Below are positions 1,960-20,677 of a DNA stretch of 28,485 nucleotides, piece after piece. This DNA comes from a virus, in IMG/VR virus record IMGVR_UViG_3300009506_000149, positions 1-28,485 of that record; one strand, 5' to 3'. How positions within the stretch are numbered: position 1 is the first letter of the stretch; every line of letters starts with the position of its first letter. The translations under genes and the position numbers were made by a program. The notes under the pieces were generated by a model. It was not told the DNA's origin, did not search any database, and was given only the letters and a program-made list of their open reading frames with translations.

Positions 1960-2967
1960 TTATTTTAAATCCTTTTTTAGAGCTTTCAACTCTTCCCAAT
2001 TTTTATCTTTACTGGTAGAATCATCGTATATCTCTACCAAATCAATCGAAGACCATCCAAACAAGTCTCTAATAAGTCTTGCTGGAAGACCCTTCTTTGA
2101 TAAATAAGTAGTTAAATAATGTCTTAATGCGTGAGCATAAAAATCTTCTTCAATTAGTTTATCAATGCTGTTAACCCAACTTCTAATCGTTCCGTCTACA
2201 GCGGGTTTTCCATTTCTCTTTATAAATAGATAGTCATGGTCTTCATTGTTTTCTTCCATAATCTTTTTTCTTTCTGGAAGCCACTCTTTAAAATGAGGTA
2301 AGAAAATCTCTGCAATAATAAATTTGTGTAACAATTTTCCAGTTTTTCCACGACCTTTAGTTCTAATTTGTCTGGTAGTCTCCAAGAATATATCATCAAA
2401 CGCTCTATTATTTTCGTCTATCAAAGACACTTCAAATCTAAGAAGTTCTGAAAAACGCGCTCCGCTTGCAACAGCCAATGCCAACCAACAGGCTTTTTGT
2501 TTATCTGTTTCGGAAAGATATTGAAGCAACCAATCTACTTTATCATCAGACAAAACAGTTTTCTCTCTCTTTTCAGATTTGGGAGCCGAATCAATTACCT
2601 TCAAAACAATATTTCTAAAGTCTGGATAATCGTCATCCATAAATCTTTCAATAAACTGACTTAAACTGGATAGTGCAGAACGCATTCGGTTTAGTCTGCT
2701 CGAACCCCATTGGAGTTCTTCTGTACAATAAGAAAAAAATTCTGACATTTCAAGTTTTTTAATATCAACAAAGAATTTATTATCCAGATAATCCAAGCAA
2801 TAAACAAAAAATATATTCAAGTCACTTTCATATCCGGTAATAGTCGTTTCAGAACACGTAATGGATTTGTTCTTTAAAAATTGTTTTTGTAAAGTTTTAT
2901 TCTTAGGATTTACTTCGTCCAGCTTTTCTGGAGTAGTAATTATTTTTCTGAATGTTGCCCTTCCCAT
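1960..2967 (-). CDS. int: Tyrosine recombinase / integrase
   Basis: This 335-residue protein is a lambda-integrase family site-specific recombinase. An N-terminal SAM-like core-binding region (about residues 40-115) is followed by the catalytic domain (about 135-330). The catalytic set is visible: R171 in SGARFSELLR, a lysine in the GRGKTGK segment (204-211), H279 and R282 in HALRH, W305 in GWSS, and nucleophile Y314 in EIYDDS. W in place of the second histidine is common in the family. The ATG shares one base with the resolvase stop (TAATG), so the two are probably translationally coupled. It would cut and rejoin DNA at an attachment site, but no att site is visible nearby. It lies between tail genes instead of in a lysogeny block, so a role in genome resolution or element mobility is also possible. 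Confidence 0.92.
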   Translation of the reverse strand: MGRATFRKIITTPEKLDEVNPKNKTLQKQFLKNKSITCSETTITGYESDLNIFFVYCLDYLDNKFFVDIKKLEMSEFFSYCTEELQWGSSRLNRMRSALSSLSQFIERFMDDDYPDFRNIVLKVIDSAPKSEKREKTVLSDDKVDWLLQYLSETDKQKACWLALAVASGARFSELLRFEVSLIDENNRAFDDIFLETTRQIRTKGRGKTGKLLHKFIIAEIFLPHFKEWLPERKKIMEENNEDHDYLFIKRNGKPAVDGTIRSWVNSIDKLIEEDFYAHALRHYLTTYLSKKGLPARLIRDLFGWSSIDLVEIYDDSTSKDKNWEELKALKKDLK

Positions 2968-3440
2968 TATAAAATACCTTTCTCCTTTAGATGCGCCACG
3001 AGTACAGCAAATGAGTCTGATTCATCATTGTTCGAAAACCCAACGTGACCATAATTTTCTATCATTTTTTGTCTTAGCTCGTCTTTCTTCATATTTCCCT
3101 TTCCTCCAGCAAGTTTCTTAACCGTTGCGGGGGGATAGGAATATATGCTTACATCGTGTAATAAATATCTAACTACACCATGCACCATATAAATAACTTG
3201 TGTAGATTTATTAAATCTATAAAATCCAGCTTCAATAGCTACTTCTTTAGGATAGAATAAATCTTTTAGTCTTATTATTTCATCGGCAATTATTTTAAGT
3301 CTTCTTCCGCTTTCGTCATCGGAATTCGTTTCAACACTTCCTAGAAATACAGGATTTCTAATATTTGTGTCATTGCCTACAATTGTTATTCCAGTTCTGG
3401 ACATTGAGACATCTAGTCCCCATATACAATTTTTCTCCAT
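2967..3440 (-). CDS. RuvC-like Holliday junction resolvase
   Basis: This 157-residue protein fits the RuvC branch of the RNase H fold. It shows D10 in GLDVSMSRTG, E70 in VAIEAGF, a basic segment (107-121) and the closing acidic pair D139 and D142 in NNDESDSFAVL. These four acidic residues match the two-metal active site of RuvC nucleases, which cut four-way DNA junctions. The length is close to that of bacterial RuvC. The gene follows a strong terminator at 3453-3489 and is coupled to the downstream recombinase by a TAATG overlap. In this phage it could resolve replication or recombination branches before packaging, or work with the recombinase. The fold assignment is strong; the physiological role is inferred. 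Confidence 0.88.
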   Translation of the reverse strand: MEKNCIWGLDVSMSRTGITIVGNDTNIRNPVFLGSVETNSDDESGRRLKIIADEIIRLKDLFYPKEVAIEAGFYRFNKSTQVIYMVHGVVRYLLHDVSIYSYPPATVKKLAGGKGNMKKDELRQKMIENYGHVGFSNNDESDSFAVLVAHLKEKGIL

Positions 3441-11192: not shown

Positions 11193-12320
11193 CTAGGCAA
11201 GCTCGATAGTTCCAGCAATTGAGCTAGTAGCAATACCAGTACCCCAACTCTTCATCAGGTTGGCGTTCTGTGTTAGGTTTGCATTTTCCATAGCGTTGTC
11301 AGTCATAGCAATAGTGCTACCTTCCAACACCACTTTGACGAGTTTACCAGCGGCAGGTGAAAGCACCCACAGTTTGGTGTCGTCAATTGTCAGCTTGAAT
11401 TCGGTTGCCCAATCAGCCTGTTGCGGAATTTCCAGAACATCTACGCCCTTGAAGTTACGAATGTAACCCATACGAACATATTCCGACTCTAGGTCGTATC
11501 TGTAGTTCACGTCAGCAGAAGGCAGAACCTCTTGCAAAGCCAGTTTTGTTCCCACTAGGGTAACAGGTGCGCCACCATTCCATGCAGACACTTTTTGTGC
11601 CAGAGAAATGAAGGTCGAATCTGACCAACCTGAGAAACGCAAAGCGTCATCACCAGCATTGTCCAGAGCGGCCATTGCCGTAGCAAAGGCTGTGTACGCA
11701 TCTTTTGCAATCTGTGCTTCCAAGCTCATAGCGGCTTTCGAAGCGAAACGAGCCAATGACTCTTGTCCGGCCAGCACTCTATACAGAGAAACGCCAACAG
11801 AAATCAGGCGGTTTTCAGGAATGATTGCAACCTGACCCTTGAATTGCTTCTTAACTTCGCCCTGACGCATAGCACGTCCAGCCTTAGAAACAACAAACAG
11901 GTCACGAGCTTCAATGTCGAAAGTGGCTGAATCGCCATAGCCGATAACTTTAACATCTGAATACATACCAGTGCTTCTCAAAATGGCATCAGGCAGTACA
12001 GCATCAATCATCTGGTTTACAACGGCAAAACTTGCCCAACGTAGCATTGGGTGAGTTGACCACGCCTCAAGAGGCATTTCCGACAGGTCTTTAACACCAG
12101 CACGCGCCATAATTTCCCGCATCATTGCTTGGTTGACCTTTTCTTCTTTTTCGGAGAATGTTACGGATTCTCCCTTTCCGTTCTTCGTAATGTAGCTTAG
12201 ACCCTTTTCACCACGTTGTTCAGCGCAATATTGGTTGTAATAGTCTACGAACATTTCGAAAAGTTCAGTTTTTCCATTGGCGAATTTCAACACGCCAGCA
12301 GGTAATCTAACAATACTCAT
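11193..12320 (-). CDS. Major capsid protein (HK97-fold type)
   Basis: This 375-residue protein lies just after the protease/scaffold and decoration-like genes. It has the length and layout of HK97-fold capsid proteins: a helical N-arm (1-90), strand-rich E-loop and P-domain segments (GYGDSATFDIEARDLFVVSKAG, then PENRLISVGVSLYRVL), a long spine-type helix (ASKAAMSLEAQIAKDAYTA), and a C-terminal A-domain with KGVDVLEIP and WVLSPAAGKLVKVV. Its codons are richer in G/C than those of neighbours, it has a strong AGGAGG site, and a stable hairpin follows the stop; all are usual for the most abundant virion protein. The final ~30 residues are N/T/A/G-rich. Confidence rests on layout and position. Confidence 0.88.
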   Translation of the reverse strand: MSIVRLPAGVLKFANGKTELFEMFVDYYNQYCAEQRGEKGLSYITKNGKGESVTFSEKEEKVNQAMMREIMARAGVKDLSEMPLEAWSTHPMLRWASFAVVNQMIDAVLPDAILRSTGMYSDVKVIGYGDSATFDIEARDLFVVSKAGRAMRQGEVKKQFKGQVAIIPENRLISVGVSLYRVLAGQESLARFASKAAMSLEAQIAKDAYTAFATAMAALDNAGDDALRFSGWSDSTFISLAQKVSAWNGGAPVTLVGTKLALQEVLPSADVNYRYDLESEYVRMGYIRNFKGVDVLEIPQQADWATEFKLTIDDTKLWVLSPAAGKLVKVVLEGSTIAMTDNAMENANLTQNANLMKSWGTGIATSSIAGTIELA

Positions 12321-12394: not shown

Positions 12395-12928
12395 TTATGC
12401 TACAGCAACAACTTCGAACATGTCCAATGCGACTCTTTGCGTTCCGATAGAACCCAAACCAATTGAAACATAATCGCTATCATCAATCAGGTGCAGTGAA
12501 AGTCCAGAAACAGCAGATGCCGCCCAAGTCAACGCCTGTGCCCCATCAGTGGCAACAACATATTCATTCGTGCTTTGAGTTCCAGCCAGAGCATCAGCAG
12601 ACATAGAAATAATGTCACCGATTTGAGGTTTGAACACAGAGAACACATCGCCAATCGGAATGTAGAAATCTCTTGGGTCAGGGTTCAAGTTCTTATATTT
12701 TGAATCGGTAAGAACAATTTCAGGTTCCCATGCCATCCACAAATCATAAAGGTGGGCTGTAGCAGGAGCAACCATTGTCCAAACTTCGTCTTCACCAGCA
12801 GTTGCCGATTTACCGCTAAAGTAACCAACAAAACCGTTTTCATATACGGCGGCTGAAACAGCACTTCTATTGAAAGAATGTACATCTTTTGCCGCTATCT
12901 TGCGAGGGATAATCAATCCATAACTCAT
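12395..12928 (-). CDS. Small virion protein, possible capsid decoration
   Basis: This 177-residue protein is beta-rich with few lysines and has ALTWAASAVSGLSLHLID and GSIGTQRVALDMFEVVAVA at its end, a closing pattern seen in capsid-associated and decoration proteins. It lies between protease/scaffold and major capsid genes, where decoration proteins often sit. Codon use is G/C-richer, like the capsid gene, suggesting high expression. AAGGAGG precedes the ATG. The precise function was not recognised. Confidence 0.72.
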   Translation of the reverse strand: MSYGLIIPRKIAAKDVHSFNRSAVSAAVYENGFVGYFSGKSATAGEDEVWTMVAPATAHLYDLWMAWEPEIVLTDSKYKNLNPDPRDFYIPIGDVFSVFKPQIGDIISMSADALAGTQSTNEYVVATDGAQALTWAASAVSGLSLHLIDDSDYVSIGLGSIGTQRVALDMFEVVAVA

Positions 12929-12959: not shown

Positions 12960-15182
12960 TTAGTCATCCCAAATAGTTTTTGATTTGGGTTGCTTATCAT
13001 ATAACTGTGGAATAGAATATACAGTTTTTCCACCAAATAGTTCTGTAATATCTTCTTCATTTTCTGGATGCTCAGATTGAGCAGAAAAGGCCATAGCTCT
13101 AACTTTATTTTTCCAACCTGATAGGTCTTCCAAAGAAAAGTTAGCATTAGCATCTTCTCGCAAAGTTTCCAGTTCTTCCTTTTTCAGAATTCCTTCAACC
13201 TCTTTTAAGGTCTTGTCAATCTCAAAAGAAAATTCCTTTGCTTCAATGTCATCTTTGAATGCTTGAAGTTCCGCATTGGATGTTGCCAGAACTTTCATTC
13301 TATCAACACACGCACTGAAAACTACTGACATTTCAAGATTGCCATTGGCATATTGTTCCATCATGGTGTCATGGCCTTCCATACCATTCAACATTTCAAG
13401 AGCTTCTTCAACTCTCTCATATTCGTTGGATGCCATTTCTTCTTCCTCACCATCTTCGCTTTCAGAAGGTTTCTTTTCTTCTTCGTCTTCTTCATCAGCG
13501 GCCATTTCTTCCTCAGCGGCCATTTCTTCCTCAGCGGCCATTTCTTCGCCTTCTGCTTTTTCTTCTTCTTCTTCTACCTCTTCTTCGGTAGCTTCATCGG
13601 AAGCAAATTCTTCTTCTACAGAAGGTTCATTTAAGGCTCCGTCTTCCAAACTCATCGCCTGTTCCTCCTTCTCGTTTAGTCCTAATTTATTATAGATGGA
13701 CTGCAATTTAGAGACAACAGAGCTTGCATTTTCTTTCTTTGCGTAAGCAAGGGCTGATGAAAGCGCATACCTATTGTATACGGCTTTTCCACCAGATATT
13801 TCCATAATGGGGTATTTTAGATGTTCGCTAGGAGCATCCTCCCATCCGGCTTCTACTTCTGCATAGACATCCTTAACGAGACTTTTATAGTTTTTAGCTT
13901 TCAAAACTTTATCTCTGAGTGCTACCTTATCTACGTTCCCCCAAGAGGTGCTACTCATGGAATCCTTACTCTTATCAACTTCGATTGATTTTCCGGTTCC
14001 ATATTCATCCTTGGATGTAGAAAATTCGCTCATGTCCTTTTTCTTTTTTACCCATTTTCCGTCTTCAACGGTATGAGATTTCTTAAATTGCGATATTGCA
14101 ATAGCCCAACCATTTTTTTCTTTGTCTGAGCCGATAGCATCGGCGTTTCTAGCTATTTCGTTAGCCTGAGCTAAAGATACCGGAGGCTTTATACCCTTTA
14201 TTGCAGGGTTTACTTCTTTCATGCTTGAATATGGCATTATTTTTTTATCCTCCTCCTGAAAATATGCGGGTATCTTTGAATCGAATTCATCCATTTCTGT
14301 TACCAGATTGGACGCCCATTCCATACCAGATTTCCCTCCACACAACTGCCAAGAAATCCAATTTTCAGATTTTGCATCAGACATATCCTTTTTGGATAGT
14401 CTGGTTAACATTTTGTGAGCATATCTAACCTTTTTGGGTGTCGCAATGTCATTGTTGTTAAGGTGATTTGCGATTGACATTATAAGAGCAGTTCCGCCCT
14501 TACCAAGATTAGTTCTAAGCTCAAGACCCTTTTTTACATTTGACTTAACGCCTTGAGGTATGGTAAAATCAATATCTTCGTATTTTGCAAAATGCTCTTT
14601 AAAGTATTTCTCTTTATTAGGCTCTTCTGAAAACGATAATATTTGTAGGTGTGCATCTGGAGATGCTTCTGTAACAAATTCACCGAGAATACATATTGCA
14701 GTATATACGAAATTGACCATTTTTCCTAACTTGGAGAAAACACCATTATCTTCGTCCATTTGGTCTACTTCGTAAAGTTCCATCTCCACACTTACTTTTT
14801 TCTTACCTTTATCTCTTTTTATAATATCCATAAGTCCACGACTATAAAGTTTCCAGATTTTGGCTGTAACGAACAGTCCCAATCTTCCATCTTCAAGTCT
14901 TTCAAATGTTTCAGAACCCTTTACAACAAAACCACCAATAAAAGGGTCTTCCCCATGACTTCCAACATCTCCAAATGTTTCATCTATCTCAAAAACGATA
15001 GGTTTTTCACCCAATGTTGGAGCAGTTCTTTTTAAGGTATCTTCATCACAAAATAAATCGTGTCTGTTAGCTCCGCTTGAAAAGGCTTGGATTCTTGCGA
15101 TTGCGAATTGGTCTGAATCATCTATTGACAAAATGTCAATATCTTCGACCTCGAAATTTAAAATACGTTTATTTTTTGGCAA
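12960..15182 (-). CDS. Prohead protease fused to scaffold-like acidic/helical region
   Basis: The start chosen is TTG at 15182, eight bases after AAAAGGAGG. A GTG at 15203 lacks a site. The product is 740 residues. The N-terminal ~200 residues resemble XkdF/U35-type phage serine proteases: GEKPIVFEID, H76 in SHGEDPFIGG and S131 in KKVSVEMELYE. Two phage-type modules follow, SLAQANEIARNADAIG then AIAISQFKKSHTVEDGKWVK (~350-390), and KYPIMEISGGKAVYNRYALSSALAYA (~470-500). Next comes a very acidic E-rich stretch with a three-fold EEEMAA repeat, then a helical C-terminus (LEDLSGWKNKVRAM). Family role: the protease cleaves scaffold and capsid proteins during head maturation. The fusion of protease, spacer modules and scaffold is inferred from position before the capsid gene. 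It overlaps the preceding gene by 14 bases. Confidence 0.8.
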   Translation of the reverse strand: MPKNKRILNFEVEDIDILSIDDSDQFAIARIQAFSSGANRHDLFCDEDTLKRTAPTLGEKPIVFEIDETFGDVGSHGEDPFIGGFVVKGSETFERLEDGRLGLFVTAKIWKLYSRGLMDIIKRDKGKKKVSVEMELYEVDQMDEDNGVFSKLGKMVNFVYTAICILGEFVTEASPDAHLQILSFSEEPNKEKYFKEHFAKYEDIDFTIPQGVKSNVKKGLELRTNLGKGGTALIMSIANHLNNNDIATPKKVRYAHKMLTRLSKKDMSDAKSENWISWQLCGGKSGMEWASNLVTEMDEFDSKIPAYFQEEDKKIMPYSSMKEVNPAIKGIKPPVSLAQANEIARNADAIGSDKEKNGWAIAISQFKKSHTVEDGKWVKKKKDMSEFSTSKDEYGTGKSIEVDKSKDSMSSTSWGNVDKVALRDKVLKAKNYKSLVKDVYAEVEAGWEDAPSEHLKYPIMEISGGKAVYNRYALSSALAYAKKENASSVVSKLQSIYNKLGLNEKEEQAMSLEDGALNEPSVEEEFASDEATEEEVEEEEEKAEGEEMAAEEEMAAEEEMAADEEDEEEKKPSESEDGEEEEMASNEYERVEEALEMLNGMEGHDTMMEQYANGNLEMSVVFSACVDRMKVLATSNAELQAFKDDIEAKEFSFEIDKTLKEVEGILKKEELETLREDANANFSLEDLSGWKNKVRAMAFSAQSEHPENEEDITELFGGKTVYSIPQLYDKQPKSKTIWDD
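13495..13548. repeat. Three tandem 18-bp repeats inside the protease/scaffold gene
   Basis: An 18-bp unit (plus strand TCAGCGGCCATTTCTTCC) occurs three times in a row with one change at the last base. It encodes EEEMAA-type units in the acidic linker. Near-identity at DNA level points to recent expansion by slippage. Confidence 0.93.
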
Positions 15183-15405
15183 TGCATTCACCTCCTTTTC
15201 CACCCATTGTCAGAGCATGACTTACTTTTATTTCTTGAGGTGCGTTTATCATGGCTTCAAGTAGTTTTTCAGTCTCAACAAAAACATAAAAATCATTTTT
15301 TCTACCGAATAAACAAAACCCCAAACTGACAAGGTATTTATATACTTCTTCCTTACAGTAAAACTTTTTTACATTTTCGACTTCATCCGAATTGATAACA
15401 TACAT
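15169..15405 (-). CDS. Small hypothetical protein between ferritin and protease genes
   Basis: This 78-residue protein was not recognised. It has a compact alpha/beta look (KEEVYKYLVSLGF, NDFYVFVETEKLLEAM) and a glycine/cysteine-rich end, GGKGGECIAKK. AAAGGA precedes the ATG, and the stop codon of the ferritin gene lies 12 bases upstream. Its last codons overlap the start of the protease gene and contain that gene's AAAAGGAGG site, so the two are coupled. Function unknown. Confidence 0.7.
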   Translation of the reverse strand: MYVINSDEVENVKKFYCKEEVYKYLVSLGFCLFGRKNDFYVFVETEKLLEAMINAPQEIKVSHALTMGGKGGECIAKK

Positions 15406-15417
15406 TAGAGTCCTTTC

Positions 15418-15903
15418 TTATCCTAAACTGGCATCCCACAACAGAACTGCTTTCCAATCGTTTCCTAGAATTTGAGCTTTATCCATGAAAGTTGTTGCTT
15501 CTTCGTATTCATTTTGTTGCAGAATAATCATTTCTCTAATTCTTTCTTCCACGACAGGATTGTTTTCGTCCATTGCGGCCAGCTTAATTTCGTCAAGACT
15601 TTTTGTAGTTAAGATTTCTCTTCCCAAGTAAGCATCTGCCACATCTTGGATGGTAGCAAAATACATATTACAAGGGTCAATCTTCGGAGTTTGAAAATCA
15701 ATGTTCAAATCTGTTAGAAGGGATAGGATTATCTTAGCATGTCCCTGTTCCTCTTCCCACTGACCTTCAAATTTTTTAGCTATGTTGTCAAACCCTTTGT
15801 TCTTAAAATACGCCGCTATGTAAATATATATATGAGCATTATAGACTTCATGCCCCCATTGCTCTATCAATGCGGCGCGTAGTTCATCGCTAATAAGAGG
15901 CAT
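15418..15903 (-). CDS. Ferritin (non-haem, ferroxidase-type) encoded in the head module
   Basis: The ATG at 15903 follows AAAGGGG by seven bases and gives 161 residues. An upstream TTG lacks good spacing. The protein aligns along its length with bacterial ferritin. Compared with E. coli FtnA numbering as I remember it, every ferroxidase residue appears at a constant offset of +2: E19 (E17), Y26 (Y24), E52 and H55 in EEEQGH (E50, H53), E96 in GREIL (E94), and Q129 and E132 in QQNEYEE (Q127, E130). The four-helix bundle and short fifth segment are all present. Family role: oxidises Fe(II) and stores it as mineral in a 24-mer shell. Here it lies between a small virion protein and the protease gene, in one operon with portal and capsid, so it is expressed with late genes. 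Whether it forms a cage, protects DNA or joins the virion is unknown. Confidence 0.9.
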   Translation of the reverse strand: MPLISDELRAALIEQWGHEVYNAHIYIYIAAYFKNKGFDNIAKKFEGQWEEEQGHAKIILSLLTDLNIDFQTPKIDPCNMYFATIQDVADAYLGREILTTKSLDEIKLAAMDENNPVVEERIREMIILQQNEYEEATTFMDKAQILGNDWKAVLLWDASLG

Positions 15904-15917
15904 TGTCAAACCCCTTT

Positions 15918-16229
15918 CTAGTATACCAGATAGTTGATTACATCATCTGCGGTAACGGCATATGTTGCGCCACCATCTGCTACAGTTAGAACCCCATCAG
16001 CCAGCGAAATCGCCGCATCAGCAGTTACAACAGCACCAGAACGCATAATTTGAACAATAAAACCTTCGCCATTTGCAAATCCAGTATCAATATCGAGAGT
16101 TCCGGCAGTACCTTCTGCGGATGTTACGGTATGAATACCTCTAGCTTGCAATCTAGTTCCTAACTCGGCTTGTCGAGCGGCTTCGTTCATTTTATTCAAA
16201 AAACCTTTGACTGCGTTAGTAATTGTCAT
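15918..16229 (-). CDS. Small virion-type protein (spike or decoration-like)
   Basis: This 103-residue protein has an N-terminal helix (NAVKGFLNKMNEAARQAELGTRL) followed by short beta strands rich in G, A, T and V (GTAGTLDIDTGFANGEGFIVQIMRSG, ISLADGVLTVADGGATYAV). Such helix-plus-barrel proteins are common as capsid decoration or cement subunits. AAGGAGG precedes the ATG closely. It lies between portal and ferritin genes, with the ferritin start 14 bases after its stop. The exact role is not recognised. Confidence 0.72.
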   Translation of the reverse strand: MTITNAVKGFLNKMNEAARQAELGTRLQARGIHTVTSAEGTAGTLDIDTGFANGEGFIVQIMRSGAVVTADAAISLADGVLTVADGGATYAVTADDVINYLVY

Positions 16230-16298: not shown

Positions 16299-17897
16299 TT
16301 ATACGTTTCCACCTCTTGATAAGTTAGCACCCTCTCCTCTGCTTCCTTCTCCTTTATCCGACAAATCGGAGTCGCTTTTCTGAGGTCGTCCAGCGTCCTT
16401 CGGAGTATTGAAAGCGGGTGTAATCGGAGTAAGCAGGTCTACGAAACCATTAGCTTTTGCTTCTACCATCATGCGCTCCAAGTTGTGGGGTTTCATCCCC
16501 CTTGATGCGGCAATCTTTTGGGGCAGAACAATTCCTAGCTGTGCCATTTCCATAGCATAATCAAATCTTTCTTTTCTATCTAGGTAATAATCGTTCCCTT
16601 CAAAGATTGGGTAGAAGTGATGCCATTTTATTTCTTTGTTAGACATATACTCCATAAATAATTGAAATTGAGAATACAACGCTTCCATAATCTTACTGTC
16701 AGATTGAAAAGATAGTTGTGTCTCAACGGTATTAGCCTTTAGATTTCCGGTATAAAATATTGCTGAGTTCATACCCGAAGATGAAAGAGATGTTTTTAGA
16801 TACGAATTGTATAAATCATTCTCCGACTTAAACTGTATGTCTTTCATGTTTTCCAAAGGAGCCGCCGCAACCTTAACAGATTCGGATATTGCAGACTTTA
16901 CGATTGCTAAGAATTGACCCAAAGTTTTTGCATCAATTGCAATCATGTCTCTAACATTTGTCTTTGCGGGTCTCATTGGAACAGAACCTAAAATCATTCT
17001 GGATGCCGCCGCCATATTCGCATTCTTTTGTAACTCTCTCATAAGAGGTTGTTCCAAAAGTTCAGGCATTAGACCTGAAAAATATGGGATGGATGTAACA
17101 AGAGATTCATCCATCTTAAAAACCCAAGCCACATCAGGAGGTAAATCTACCCAATAAGCAAACATGCTTTCAGGATTACCTCTATACTTAGGGTCTACAG
17201 GTGGGACATATCTTCCATCTTTGTCTTTAATAAATAATTCGTTGAATTTATCTCTGAAAAATTTAGGGAAGAATCTTATGTCTACTCCGGCTTGAAGAAA
17301 GTATGAGAAATCAAAGTTTATAAGAAATCCATAATCCCATCGTCCAGTAATCTTGCATCTATCTAACGGTAGCTCTTGAAGAACAAGTTTGTCACCGTCA
17401 TCTCTCGGACAGACAACAACAGTTTCATTTCTTAACATTTGTTTCAAGACACGTCTAAACTGACCATGCCAATCAAAATTATCAAGAAAATCTTCGAACT
17501 GAGCCTTATCTTTTTTAAACTTGCTAGATTTATAATCAGCTTCGTCAAGGCTTCCATTATTTCCCGTTACAACATATGTCATATCAAAAGCCAAATGTGT
17601 CATCATATATGAAAGAATTCTCTTCATTGGCATTGAAACAATATCTAAATATTCCATAAAAGAACGTAGAATTTCTTCGTTGTCTTTTGGATTATTCAAG
17701 GCTTTTGTAAGGTCTTCTGCTGTATACTCTCTAGGAGTAAACGAAATATCTTTCATTGCTCTGTTGAGCATTTGAGGAGTTATTGCTCCGAGAGGGAAAT
17801 AAGTTCCTAGTTGCTCCCTTGCGAACGTTAGAACATCGAACACTTGTTCTGGAGTCAGTTCTTCTTCAATAGGAGCTTCTTTCTCTTTATCAGACAT
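16299..17897 (-). CDS. Portal protein
   Basis: This 532-residue protein follows the large terminase gene by 14 bases. It has the size and composition of siphovirus portals: an acidic N-terminus, a helical and strand-mixed wing, KWHHFYPIFEGNDYYLDRKERFDYAMEMA near the end of the ordered part, and a disordered charged tail (SDSDLSDKGEGSRGEG). The central AASRMILGSVPM to AIDAKTLGQF region and the ETQLSFQSD segment resemble the stem and crown helices. Family role: a dodecameric ring at one capsid vertex, binding terminase during packaging and connectors afterwards. GGGAGG precedes the ATG. The call is based on position, size and general pattern. Confidence 0.85.
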   Translation of the reverse strand: MSDKEKEAPIEEELTPEQVFDVLTFAREQLGTYFPLGAITPQMLNRAMKDISFTPREYTAEDLTKALNNPKDNEEILRSFMEYLDIVSMPMKRILSYMMTHLAFDMTYVVTGNNGSLDEADYKSSKFKKDKAQFEDFLDNFDWHGQFRRVLKQMLRNETVVVCPRDDGDKLVLQELPLDRCKITGRWDYGFLINFDFSYFLQAGVDIRFFPKFFRDKFNELFIKDKDGRYVPPVDPKYRGNPESMFAYWVDLPPDVAWVFKMDESLVTSIPYFSGLMPELLEQPLMRELQKNANMAAASRMILGSVPMRPAKTNVRDMIAIDAKTLGQFLAIVKSAISESVKVAAAPLENMKDIQFKSENDLYNSYLKTSLSSSGMNSAIFYTGNLKANTVETQLSFQSDSKIMEALYSQFQLFMEYMSNKEIKWHHFYPIFEGNDYYLDRKERFDYAMEMAQLGIVLPQKIAASRGMKPHNLERMMVEAKANGFVDLLTPITPAFNTPKDAGRPQKSDSDLSDKGEGSRGEGANLSRGGNV

Positions 17898-17911: not shown

Positions 17912-19687
17912 TTAATTGACAAATTGCAATACAGAAGCCATAGCTTCTAAATCGCTTTTATTGTCGTCTTGTTTTAGTATATCTAAATCGAAAAAGGAAG
18001 CAATCCAGTTCAAATAGGATACGCTTGTATACCTATCTTTGTATGCTCCCTCGCTTTCTTCTAGTTTTATGTTACCTGATAATAGTTTCATATTCAGGTT
18101 TACGGATTCATTAATCATCAGATTGGTTTGAACATAAGGACTCATATAGAAGGCTCTTAGTTCCGAATTATCTAAATTGGAAACATAATCCTTATTTGTT
18201 TCCAATAAGAATTCTTCACCTTCCATGTCAGTAATCAAAAATTCCCACAGATGTTTTTGTAAAGAAGACCTGAAAGCAACTGCTATCTGACTATTCAATA
18301 ATCCCGTAGCACTTATCGGAAATACGACCTCTATAGGTTCCGCTCCCAAAGTTCTATCTACAAGCTCTTCTTTTACTTTTTCATCTATAAATTCGGAGTC
18401 AGCAACGGTCATTGCAGGATAATCAACACCTCTTTCTTCGTCAATCGTAGTTTGAGAAAGAGAATCGAAAATTGAAATTCCCGCATTTTTAAGGTCTAAT
18501 ACTAACCAATCAGCTTCAAAATCGAAGAATATCTGTTTTATTCTTTTAGCCTGTACGAGAGTGTTTATACCTTTATGACTTTCCATATAAACCAGCATTC
18601 TTTTATATCCTCTACCCATCATGGGTATGAGTCTTGCACAGCTTATAATTGTATTGTCGTTGGCTTTTCCCGCTCTTGTAGCTATATCCACTGAAACCAT
18701 TCGTATCTCTCCAGCTACTTTATCAATAGCGTAGGGATTTCTTTTTTGATTATAAGTCTCAACTCTTTGTGGATAAAAAGCTCTTCGCATAACCCTATTA
18801 AACATGGACATCTTGAAATATGCTTTTCCACTTGAACCAGCCGGAATATTCAAATATTCCATCTGTTTAGTAAGAGAATCCATATCAGTAGATTCATTTC
18901 TAATCATTTCTTCTGTTTTGATATTGTGATATGTTGTTATCAAATAATCCATAGCTAAGAAGTTTGCAGTTTCATCCCCATCTACAACTCTCTTTATGGT
19001 TCTCTTTACCATGTTAAACCAATATTCAGATTTGAAACCAGCACTGGTAATATAGCTTATAATACCTTCTTCTTTTAGTTCTGGTCTGGTTCCATATTTC
19101 GGGTTCTGCATATACGGAGGTTTTCTAGAAAATAGGAAGGGTCTCAAGACAGAATCTAAAACGTCTTGAGGAACCAATCTAGATTCGTCAAGAATAAGAT
19201 AGTTACATCTTTGTCCTCTAGCATTTTCCGTACTAACAGAAGCCTTGATTGTACTTCCGTTGTGAAATATAACCTCGTATGTGTTACTATTATCTGTAAG
19301 TTTTTCTATCTCTCTTGCGACATTGGGATAATCTTTTTGTAATGCTTTTATTTTTTCTGTTACAATAATTCCGGCCTGTTTTAAGGTTTTGCTTGCTACA
19401 ATAACCTTAATTCCCGGATATAATACAGCCAAAGTCAAAGCCCATATACCAATAAGGAACGATTTCGCCGCCGCACGAGCCGCAACCCAATAGAAAAGAT
19501 TGCTTCTTTGTAGCATCCATATTACTAATTTCTGATATGGATATAGTCTTATTCCAAAGTAATCTTCAATAAAGATGTGAGGATTTAATCTGAAAAATGT
19601 TATCCACTTTTTATATCTTTCTCTCTTTTCTTTGTCCAGTTGCTCAGATGTTTTTATTGTTCTAGGAGATTTTTTATAACCAGCCAT
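17912..19687 (-). CDS. terL: Terminase large subunit (packaging ATPase and nuclease)
   Basis: This 591-residue protein shows both terminase domains. ATPase: a variant Walker A, ARAAAKSFL (residues 70-78, an alanine in the place of the usual glycine before KS); Walker B YLILDES (163-169) with the catalytic glutamate; and a coupling ITSAG (213-217). RNase H-fold nuclease: D334 in VSVDIATRAG, D398 in LVLDLKNAG, and a closing D in YKDRYTSVSYLNW near the C-terminus. Together they drive DNA into the prohead and cut it. AGGAGG precedes the ATG, and the gene lies directly between the small-terminase candidate and the portal gene. The function is secure; the alanine-type P-loop occurs in some phage lineages in my experience. 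Confidence 0.96.
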   Translation of the reverse strand: MAGYKKSPRTIKTSEQLDKEKRERYKKWITFFRLNPHIFIEDYFGIRLYPYQKLVIWMLQRSNLFYWVAARAAAKSFLIGIWALTLAVLYPGIKVIVASKTLKQAGIIVTEKIKALQKDYPNVAREIEKLTDNSNTYEVIFHNGSTIKASVSTENARGQRCNYLILDESRLVPQDVLDSVLRPFLFSRKPPYMQNPKYGTRPELKEEGIISYITSAGFKSEYWFNMVKRTIKRVVDGDETANFLAMDYLITTYHNIKTEEMIRNESTDMDSLTKQMEYLNIPAGSSGKAYFKMSMFNRVMRRAFYPQRVETYNQKRNPYAIDKVAGEIRMVSVDIATRAGKANDNTIISCARLIPMMGRGYKRMLVYMESHKGINTLVQAKRIKQIFFDFEADWLVLDLKNAGISIFDSLSQTTIDEERGVDYPAMTVADSEFIDEKVKEELVDRTLGAEPIEVVFPISATGLLNSQIAVAFRSSLQKHLWEFLITDMEGEEFLLETNKDYVSNLDNSELRAFYMSPYVQTNLMINESVNLNMKLLSGNIKLEESEGAYKDRYTSVSYLNWIASFFDLDILKQDDNKSDLEAMASVLQFVN

Positions 19688-19696
19688 TTATCCCTC

Positions 19697-20677
19697 CTAG
19701 TTCACTCCATCTTCATTTCCCATATATTTTAGGAGACCATCTGGACTATCGAAAATTTCATCTTCTTCGGAATCTTCCGTAAGAGCTTCAATGTTGAAGT
19801 CCCTGCTTCCAGTCATGAAGTTCTTTATAGCTCTAACAACATAGTTTTTGAAATACCAGCCAATGTTTTGCCAATCTTTGAAAGCATCTCGCTCTTCTCC
19901 ATATACTTCTGCGGGTTCGTTTTCCTCTATCATCTTTATAAAATTAGAAAACGTCTCCTGAGATTTAGAGCCTGATGAAGCCTTTTGGGGGTCTACATTT
20001 GCCGTCTTTATCAAACTTTCATACTGCTTATCAAGATTTGTTGTTGGGTCTCCATTAAGTCTTGCTTTCATTGTGTCGAATTCGTTCCACACAATTCTCT
20101 TCAACAAACCTTCTTCTGCCGTTGTGTCACACTTATGAGTAGATTTCCATTTTTCGAACTTGGCTTCTAACCATTCGTAATCGGACAATTCCAGTCCCAT
20201 TCCCCATTCTTGTTCGAAATATTTCATAGCGTCTACGTCACCACTATCATCGTAATCATGTTGTGAAACAACATTTTCTTGTGAAGACATTGGTTCTACA
20301 AATGTCATAACATTAAAGTCAGCACCTTGTACATTTCCGCTTCCTGCTAACGCCTGCTTATAAAATCCCCATACGTTTGTAGGAAATTTTGTTAGTTTCT
20401 CAATTCTCGATTGAACACCATTTACAGCGTTCTCAGAAAAAGCTATATTAAGTGCCCTACATGTATTTAATATTGCAACTCTAAGATTTTTTGTTGATGC
20501 AAAATTAGCATTGAATACATCGTTGCAACAATCCTTGCATACACTCATGTACCCATTAGAATCGAGCAACTTGTCAACCGCTGTGTAAAAGTTATTAGAC
20601 CCTTTTAATTGCATACACTTTCTACAATAAACAGGTTCGGAGGCATCTTTTCTTCTCGAACGTACATTCTTTGGCAT
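19697..20677 (-). CDS. Putative small terminase subunit with zinc finger
   Basis: This 326-residue protein starts with a basic stretch (SRRKDASE) and a four-cysteine finger, C18/C21 (CRKC) and C47/C50 (CKDC). A helical body and a long acidic C-terminus (EALTEDSEEDEIFDSPDG) follow. Small terminase subunits recognise the packaging site and usually lie immediately upstream of terL, as here (9-base gap). A zinc finger at the N-terminus is seen in some large-phage small terminases, but 326 residues is long for the family. A strong AAGGAGG site follows an intrinsic terminator, so this gene begins a new transcription block. The call rests on position and DNA-binding features. Confidence 0.66.
   Translation of the reverse strand: MPKNVRSRRKDASEPVYCRKCMQLKGSNNFYTAVDKLLDSNGYMSVCKDCCNDVFNANFASTKNLRVAILNTCRALNIAFSENAVNGVQSRIEKLTKFPTNVWGFYKQALAGSGNVQGADFNVMTFVEPMSSQENVVSQHDYDDSGDVDAMKYFEQEWGMGLELSDYEWLEAKFEKWKSTHKCDTTAEEGLLKRIVWNEFDTMKARLNGDPTTNLDKQYESLIKTANVDPQKASSGSKSQETFSNFIKMIEENEPAEVYGEERDAFKDWQNIGWYFKNYVVRAIKNFMTGSRDFNIEALTEDSEEDEIFDSPDGLLKYMGNEDGVN

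What the first reader, a model, noticed from the sequence alone, without database searches (positions are those of the whole stretch)
15418..15903. A complete ferroxidase-type ferritin inside the phage head operon
The 161-residue product carries every ferritin ferroxidase residue at a constant offset from E. coli FtnA (E19, Y26, E52, H55, E96, Q129, E132), so it should oxidise iron. It lies between a small virion protein and the protease/scaffold gene, with good ribosome sites and short gaps, so it is made with the capsid. Cellular ferritins are rarely found in phage head operons to my knowledge. A particle-linked iron store or oxidant sink would be a new virion function, fitting the idea that virions carry iron to the host.
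Basis: partly seen in the sequence, partly recalled or inferred. Interest (0 to 1): 0.85.

Follow-up and report, generated by a model that had tools for sequence, protein, structure and literature searches.

The report
Phage-specific ferritin in head-gene operon
This virus of bacteria really does carry an apparently working iron-storage protein (ferritin) among its capsid genes, and dozens of related viruses keep one at exactly the same place, so it is a conserved viral gene family and not a stray bacterial gene, although nothing yet shows that it travels inside the virus particle.

Summary
Window 15903→15418 (minus strand) encodes a 161-residue ferritin: PF00210 E=1e-13, AlphaFold2 pLDDT 95, TM 0.9 to solved ferritins, all seven ferroxidase residues present, E-helix present. 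It is not a chance insertion. Of 67 distinct ferritin-bearing records found, 64 carry it in the same slot of an SPbeta-related head operon: portal–(small gene)–ferritin–small gene–protease/scaffold-like–MCP. Base composition is that of the phage and dN/dS is 0.03–0.15. All 37 phage ferritins examined keep the ferroxidase residues and share two substitutions beside the di-iron site (N22, T99), a pair found in none of 49 cellular ferritins. A second, unrelated phage type (L216) carries the same ferritin subfamily between terminase and portal. A sister group in the same slot (Thomasclavelia and Enterocloster phages) keeps the fold but has lost the ferroxidase site. Ferritin versions are exchanged between phages whose head proteins are up to 95% identical, and do not covary with head proteins. 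I therefore favour a late-made, interchangeable accessory ferritin acting in the infected cell (about 0.5). A virion or assembly role is open and untested (about 0.25). The Ferrojan reading has no direct support.

The parts
15418..15903 (-). Ferroxidase-type ferritin, 161 aa, five helices (A-D and E)
   Evidence: PF00210 E=9.7e-14; AF2 pLDDT 95; TM 0.9 to ferritins; seven ferroxidase residues and phage signature N22/T99
15918..16229 (-). 103-aa gene between portal and ferritin (small103); fast-evolving, optional, 1-2 copies in relatives
   Evidence: no Pfam or PHROG match; homologues in the slot in many but not all relatives
15169..15405 (-). 78-aa gene after the ferritin, homologous by profile to the gene annotated DUF5659 in phage TR-TP1; present with or without ferritin
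12960..15188 (-). Protease/scaffold-like gene, counterpart of SPbeta yonD
   Evidence: synteny and profile; phrog_3313, unknown function
16299..17897 (-). Portal protein
   Evidence: phrog_2739 E=1.6e-52
17912..19687 (-). Terminase large subunit, SPbeta yonF-like
   Evidence: tblastn 34-40% to SPbeta-like and Thomasclavelia phages; phrog_2
19697..20677 (-). yonG-like gene before the terminase
   Evidence: phrog_3314 E=2e-35; profile
12395..12928 (-). yonC-like virion gene
   Evidence: phrog_4147; synteny with SPBc2 yonC 'virion structural protein'
11193..12320 (-). Major capsid protein counterpart (yonB-like)
   Evidence: phrog_4088; synteny with the gene called major capsid protein in PMBT24

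Best explanation
The gene is a phage-owned, catalytically intact bacterial-type ferritin of an old phage-specific subfamily, kept as an interchangeable accessory cassette in the late head operon. Most likely it is made late, together with the capsid proteins, assembles into a ferritin cage in the host cytoplasm, and binds and oxidises Fe2+ (consuming O2 or H2O2) while head assembly and lysis proceed, limiting iron-driven oxidative damage to phage DNA and proteins or withholding iron from the host. Shown here: gene, fold, intact ferroxidase residues, purifying selection, fixed slot, exchange independent of the head proteins. Inferred: late expression (from operon position), 24-mer assembly (from the E helix and the fold), ferroxidase activity (from the residues), and the protective or sequestering role.
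For: All seven ferroxidase residues kept in 37 of 37 phage copies that fall to 26% identity. dN/dS 0.03-0.15 for the FTN1 pairs that are not saturated. Ferritin is exchanged while the head genes stay: L042/L051 MCP 95%, portal 82%, protease 81%, ferritin 33%; window/L041 ferritin 58% but portal 37%, MCP 48%. Ferritin distances correlate weakly with those of the genes around it (r 0.21-0.45 for the large genes) whereas head genes correlate at 0.83-0.98 with one another. Relatives with the slot but no ferritin exist (L002, L045, L055, L058, L063, L072). The window protein ends two residues after helix E, leaving no tail for cargo loading. In L216 the neighbouring gene has an Acb2/Tad1 hairpin domain, which hints at an accessory-gene site. 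Dps and Mn-catalase are reported in other phages of anaerobes and read as oxidative-stress genes (PMC8008677).
Against: The slot sister group (FTN2) keeps the fold but has lost the ferroxidase site, so ferroxidase activity cannot be the only reason a ferritin is kept there. Strict confinement to the head operon, in two unrelated head modules, could mean a role in the head. Distances between ferritin subtypes are near saturation, which weakens the correlation test (the single swap examples are not affected). The third iron site (FtnA E126/E129) is degraded in the window's clade, so mineralisation may differ from FtnA. No expression or biochemical data.
Confidence: 0.5

Rival explanations
1. The ferritin is a component of the particle or of the prohead: co-assembled inside or on the capsid as an iron/oxidant sink or as a structural element, so that iron can be carried to the next host (Ferrojan-like, or a phage counterpart of an encapsulin with ferritin cargo).
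For: Fixed slot between portal and protease/MCP in 64 of 67 distinct records; same subfamily in the head module of an unrelated phage type, TerS-TerL-ferritin-portal-S78 protease-HK97 capsid; retention of an iron-site-less ferritin fold in the same slot; a Phyre2-predicted ferritin was found in the virion mass spectrum of Vi01-like phages (PMC10892097).
Against: Ferritin does not covary with head proteins and is swapped or missing between close relatives. No cargo tail after helix E. The Vi01 study saw no dependence on TonB or FeoB. No proteomics for this lineage.
Confidence: 0.25
2. The ferritin works by acting on host ferritin or on a host defence: for example it mixes into host ferritin cages, or serves as a counter-defence protein; FTN2 would be a catalytically dead version that poisons or occupies a partner.
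For: Loss of the iron site with retention of the fold; exchange of versions, with homing-endonuclease-like genes beside the slot; Acb2/Tad1 hairpin gene next to the L216 ferritin.
Against: No known defence or counter-defence system uses a ferritin, to my knowledge; strong purifying selection and invariant catalytic residues in FTN1 point to catalysis.
Confidence: 0.15
3. A recently captured bacterial ferritin that sits in the head operon by chance (moron), with no selected function.
For: Cellular ferritins of Bacillota are homologous; the gene is missing in some close relatives.
Against: Same slot in dozens of phages; phages on one side of a branch; phage-only N22/T99 pair in 37/37 against 0/49 cellular; dN/dS 0.03-0.15 and GC 38.3% against 37.3% for the window.
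Confidence: 0.03

Closest known systems
Bacterial/archaeal non-haem ferritin (FtnA; Archaeoglobus, Thermotoga and Pyrococcus ferritins), PF00210
   Same: Fold, five helices, seven ferroxidase residues, constant spacing
   Different: About 20-24% identity to solved ferritins; N22 and T99 beside the di-iron site instead of mostly S and V/I; third iron site (FtnA E126/E129) lost in the window's clade
'Ferritin' of Enterocloster phage PMBT24 (ORF39) and Thomasclavelia phage TR-TP1
   Same: Same slot between portal and protease-like gene, same fold
   Different: Ferroxidase site lost; named in the PMBT24 paper without further study (PMC11035940)
Dps and Mn-catalase of 'Gratiaviridae' and Dps of Lactobacillus phages
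   Same: Ferritin-superfamily proteins in phages of (facultative) anaerobes (PMC8008677, PMC6669764)
   Different: Different families (Dps, catalase); in the Lactobacillus phages the gene lies near DNA-metabolism genes, not in the head operon
Vi01-like phage gp217 'ferritin' found in virions by mass spectrometry
   Same: Ferritin-like prediction; reported in the particle (PMC10892097)
   Different: Phyre2 prediction only; placed by the authors in an operon with a tail completion protein; unrelated phage
Encapsulins with encapsulated ferritin
   Same: HK97-fold shell encoded with a ferritin-superfamily protein (PMC8346489, PMC8791618)
   Different: Classical five-helix ferritin rather than a decameric ferritin-like cargo; no C-terminal loading tail; the shell here belongs to a DNA-packaging phage

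Membership tests
Non-haem ferritin (Ftn, PF00210) | Profile match over the family cut-off | tested here: met
   51.9 bits against 24.5
Non-haem ferritin (Ftn, PF00210) | Four-helix bundle with long BC loop and E helix | tested here: met
Non-haem ferritin (Ftn, PF00210) | Ferroxidase residues E17, Y24, E50, H53, E94, Q127, E130 (FtnA numbering) | tested here: met
   all present; 37 of 37 phage copies
Non-haem ferritin (Ftn, PF00210) | Third iron site, E126/E129 (bacterial FtnA type; not required of all ferritins) | tested here: not met
   L128 and N131 in the window. This is a feature of the FtnA subtype, so it lowers 'is an FtnA', not 'is a ferritin'
Non-haem ferritin (Ftn, PF00210) | 24-mer cage that mineralises iron | not testable with these tools
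   inferred from fold and E helix only
Bacterioferritin | His instead of Glu at the FtnA E130 position, haem-binding Met | tested here: not met
   E132 and Q129 are of Ftn type; the haem Met was not examined
Dps | No E helix, inter-subunit di-iron site | tested here: not met
   E helix 150-159 and intra-subunit site residues
Encapsulated ferritin | Ferritin-like cargo with C-terminal targeting peptide | tested here: not met
   five-helix model; chain ends two residues after helix E
Virion protein / Ferrojan iron carrier | Presence of protein and iron in the particle | not testable with these tools
   no proteomics available for this lineage

The most novel reading that the evidence does not exclude
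A phage-specific ferritin lineage works in head assembly or in the particle: the phage head doubles as an iron or oxidant compartment, a live phage counterpart of ferritin-loaded encapsulins, and in some gut phages the ferritin has turned into a purely structural part that has lost iron chemistry.
Probability: 0.2. Interest if true: 0.95.

Novelty: new variant of a known kind. Interest (0 to 1): 0.72.

Why it matters
Phages are usually not credited with iron metabolism of their own. A ferroxidase-intact ferritin subfamily fixed in the head operon of many uncultivated phages, spread to a second head type, with an iron-dead sister group in cultured gut phages, makes the questions 'do virions carry iron?' and 'why do phages make ferritin late?' testable: the Enterocloster phages can be grown. 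It also bears on how ferritin-loaded encapsulins could arise from phage capsid operons.

Tried and rejected
Single-sequence search of viral contigs and phages with the window ferritin found nothing, because of pattern choice and divergence; terminase-anchored and subfamily-alignment searches solved it. The whole-family alignment A4 was too divergent for a collection scan. BLASTP between window ferritin and the TR-TP1 protein gives no match; relatedness rests on profiles (hhalign probability 87%, E 4e-7; A5 profile against PDB ferritins 4e-5), the fold and the slot. Whether FTN2 descends from FTN1 or from a separate ferritin is not settled. I considered FTN2 as Dps-like because of an LHEK motif; the profile and fold searches found ferritins and not Dps. 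Ferritin hits in 'Bacteriophage sp.' MT836766, MT838998 and MT839617 lie in what look like bacterial chromosome fragments; the S. aureus phage hits may be host DNA too but were not examined. Small103 and the DUF5659-like gene gave no function. Encapsulin-type C-terminal targeting was rejected for lack of a tail.

Full report
WHAT IS THERE. The interval 15418-15903 is a gene on the minus strand, ATG at 15903, stop at 15420-15418, 161 codons. The product matches PF00210 (E=9.7e-14) and solved ferritins of Pyrococcus, Archaeoglobus, Thermotoga and E. coli (E down to 1e-9). AlphaFold2 with 21 sequences gives pLDDT 95.1 and pTM 0.88, four long helices, a long BC loop and a short E helix at 150-159. 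Foldseek returns ferritins with TM about 0.9. E19, Y26, E52, H55, E96, Q129 and E132 sit on the seven FtnA ferroxidase positions. The third iron site of FtnA (E126, E129) is not kept in the window protein (L128, N131).

THE OPERON. Reading along the minus strand: yonG-like gene, terminase (34-40% to SPbeta-like and Thomasclavelia phages), portal (phrog_2739), a 103-aa gene, ferritin, a 78-aa gene, a protease/scaffold-like gene, a yonC-like gene and the capsid-protein counterpart. Gaps around the ferritin are 14 and 12 nt, with Shine-Dalgarno sequences, and the scan lists no terminator-like site on the minus strand between portal and protease-like gene. GC of the ferritin gene is 38.3% against 37.3% for the window. 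The record is a 28.5-kb linear virus contig.

CONSERVED SLOT. A terminase profile fetched 80 viral and 25 genome loci. Scans with the ferritin subfamilies alone added more. Of 77 loci with a ferritin (67 distinct records after removing ten fetched twice; some are near-copies from related samples), 74 loci (64 distinct) have it between the portal and the 78-aa gene or protease-like gene; nine of these are seen from one side only because a flanking gene is off the contig or not recognised. In the terminase tree the ferritin-bearing environmental phages, with some ferritin-free ones, form a clade beside SPbeta-like prophages, mostly of Bacillota, none of which have a ferritin there; TR-TP1 falls outside that clade on a long, uncertain branch.

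TWO KINDS OF FERRITIN IN ONE SLOT. FTN1 (window type) keeps all seven ferroxidase residues in 37 of 37 copies, although members fall to 26% identity. FTN2 (TR-TP1, PMBT24, CB473P1 and environmental relatives) occupies the same slot, still matches ferritins by profile (E=4e-5) and by fold (TM 0.85; model pLDDT 77), but has lost the ferroxidase site: at six of the seven positions none of seven FTN2 proteins has the ligand, and the His at the seventh depends on a gapped alignment. PMBT24 ORF39 was named ferritin in its genome paper without comment (PMC11035940).

A PHAGE-OWNED SUBFAMILY. In trees with 35 and 49 cellular ferritins the FTN1 phages form one side of a branch (98/88; 90/87). Cellular rows come from three phyla reached through my loci plus E. 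coli, so a closer cellular source elsewhere is not excluded. Two residues beside the di-iron ligands, N22 and T99, occur together in 37/37 phage copies and in 0/49 cellular ones.

A SECOND HEAD TYPE. L216 is an unrelated contig with Terminase_2, Terminase_3, Phage_portal, Peptidase_S78 and Phage_capsid. Its ferritin (PF00210 E=1e-21) lies between terminase and portal, carries the N22/T99 pair and groups with the FTN1 phages (99/94). A relative at 59% identity (L220 and copies) is also between terminase and portal, with several small genes between. So the same ferritin subfamily has reached two unrelated head modules.

SELECTION AND EXCHANGE. dN/dS is 0.03-0.15 for the FTN1 pairs that are not saturated. 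The cassette moves: L042 and L051 share MCP at 95%, portal 82%, protease 81% but ferritin at 33%; window and L041 share ferritin at 58% with portal at 37%. Head genes covary tightly (r 0.83-0.98); ferritin does not follow them (r 0.21-0.45). A GIY-YIG homing endonuclease gene directly follows the ferritin in L174, and other zinc-finger or CapR-type genes flank it in L205 and L209, which offers a ready route for exchange (inference).

HOW IT PROBABLY WORKS. The intact residues and purifying selection say that FTN1 oxidises iron. Free exchange, absence in near relatives, and lack of any tail for packaging argue that it is not a tightly fitted capsid part. I therefore favour a late-made cytoplasmic ferritin that handles Fe2+ and oxidants during assembly and lysis (0.5). 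The strict link to head operons, repeated in a second head type, and the iron-dead FTN2, keep a head-assembly or virion role open (0.25). The Ferrojan idea is not supported by anything found here; the one published virion ferritin-like protein (Vi01-like gp217, PMC10892097) is of an unrelated phage and infection there did not depend on TonB or FeoB.

NOVELTY. Phage Dps, Mn-catalase and giant-virus ferritins are known (PMC8008677, PMC6669764, PMC7136201). I found no paper that describes a ferritin family fixed in phage head operons, its catalytic signature, its iron-dead sister group or its spread to a second head type. The library holds open-licence papers only, so earlier notice elsewhere is possible.

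Noticed in passing
L216:5159-5515: A 118-aa gene directly after the ferritin has an Acb2/Tad1 hairpin domain (PF24729, E=1.8e-8), the domain of anti-CBASS/anti-Thoeris sponges.
   Followed up: no
L174:3300-4052; L205:3137-10009; L209:4466-4921: Homing-endonuclease-like genes (GIY-YIG with NUMOD3; DUF4379/CapR types) sit directly beside the ferritin slot.
   Followed up: partly
window 15918-16229 and small103 homologues in L041, L047, L061, L063, L214: A fast-evolving small gene family recurs between portal and ferritin and again upstream of yonG, sometimes in two copies; no known family.
   Followed up: partly
L030, L041, L184-L186, L189, L193, L201: The terminase gene is broken into two ORFs in many relatives, as if by introns, inteins or endonuclease insertions.
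   Followed up: no
MT836766.1, MT838998.1, MT839617.1 (L224-L226): Records labelled 'Bacteriophage sp.' that look like bacterial chromosome fragments carrying an ordinary ferritin.
   Followed up: yes
window 1960-2967 and 2967-3440: Tyrosine-recombinase-like gene (PF00589; position like SPbeta yomM) next to a RuvC-like resolvase gene (PF02075) in the late region.
   Followed up: no
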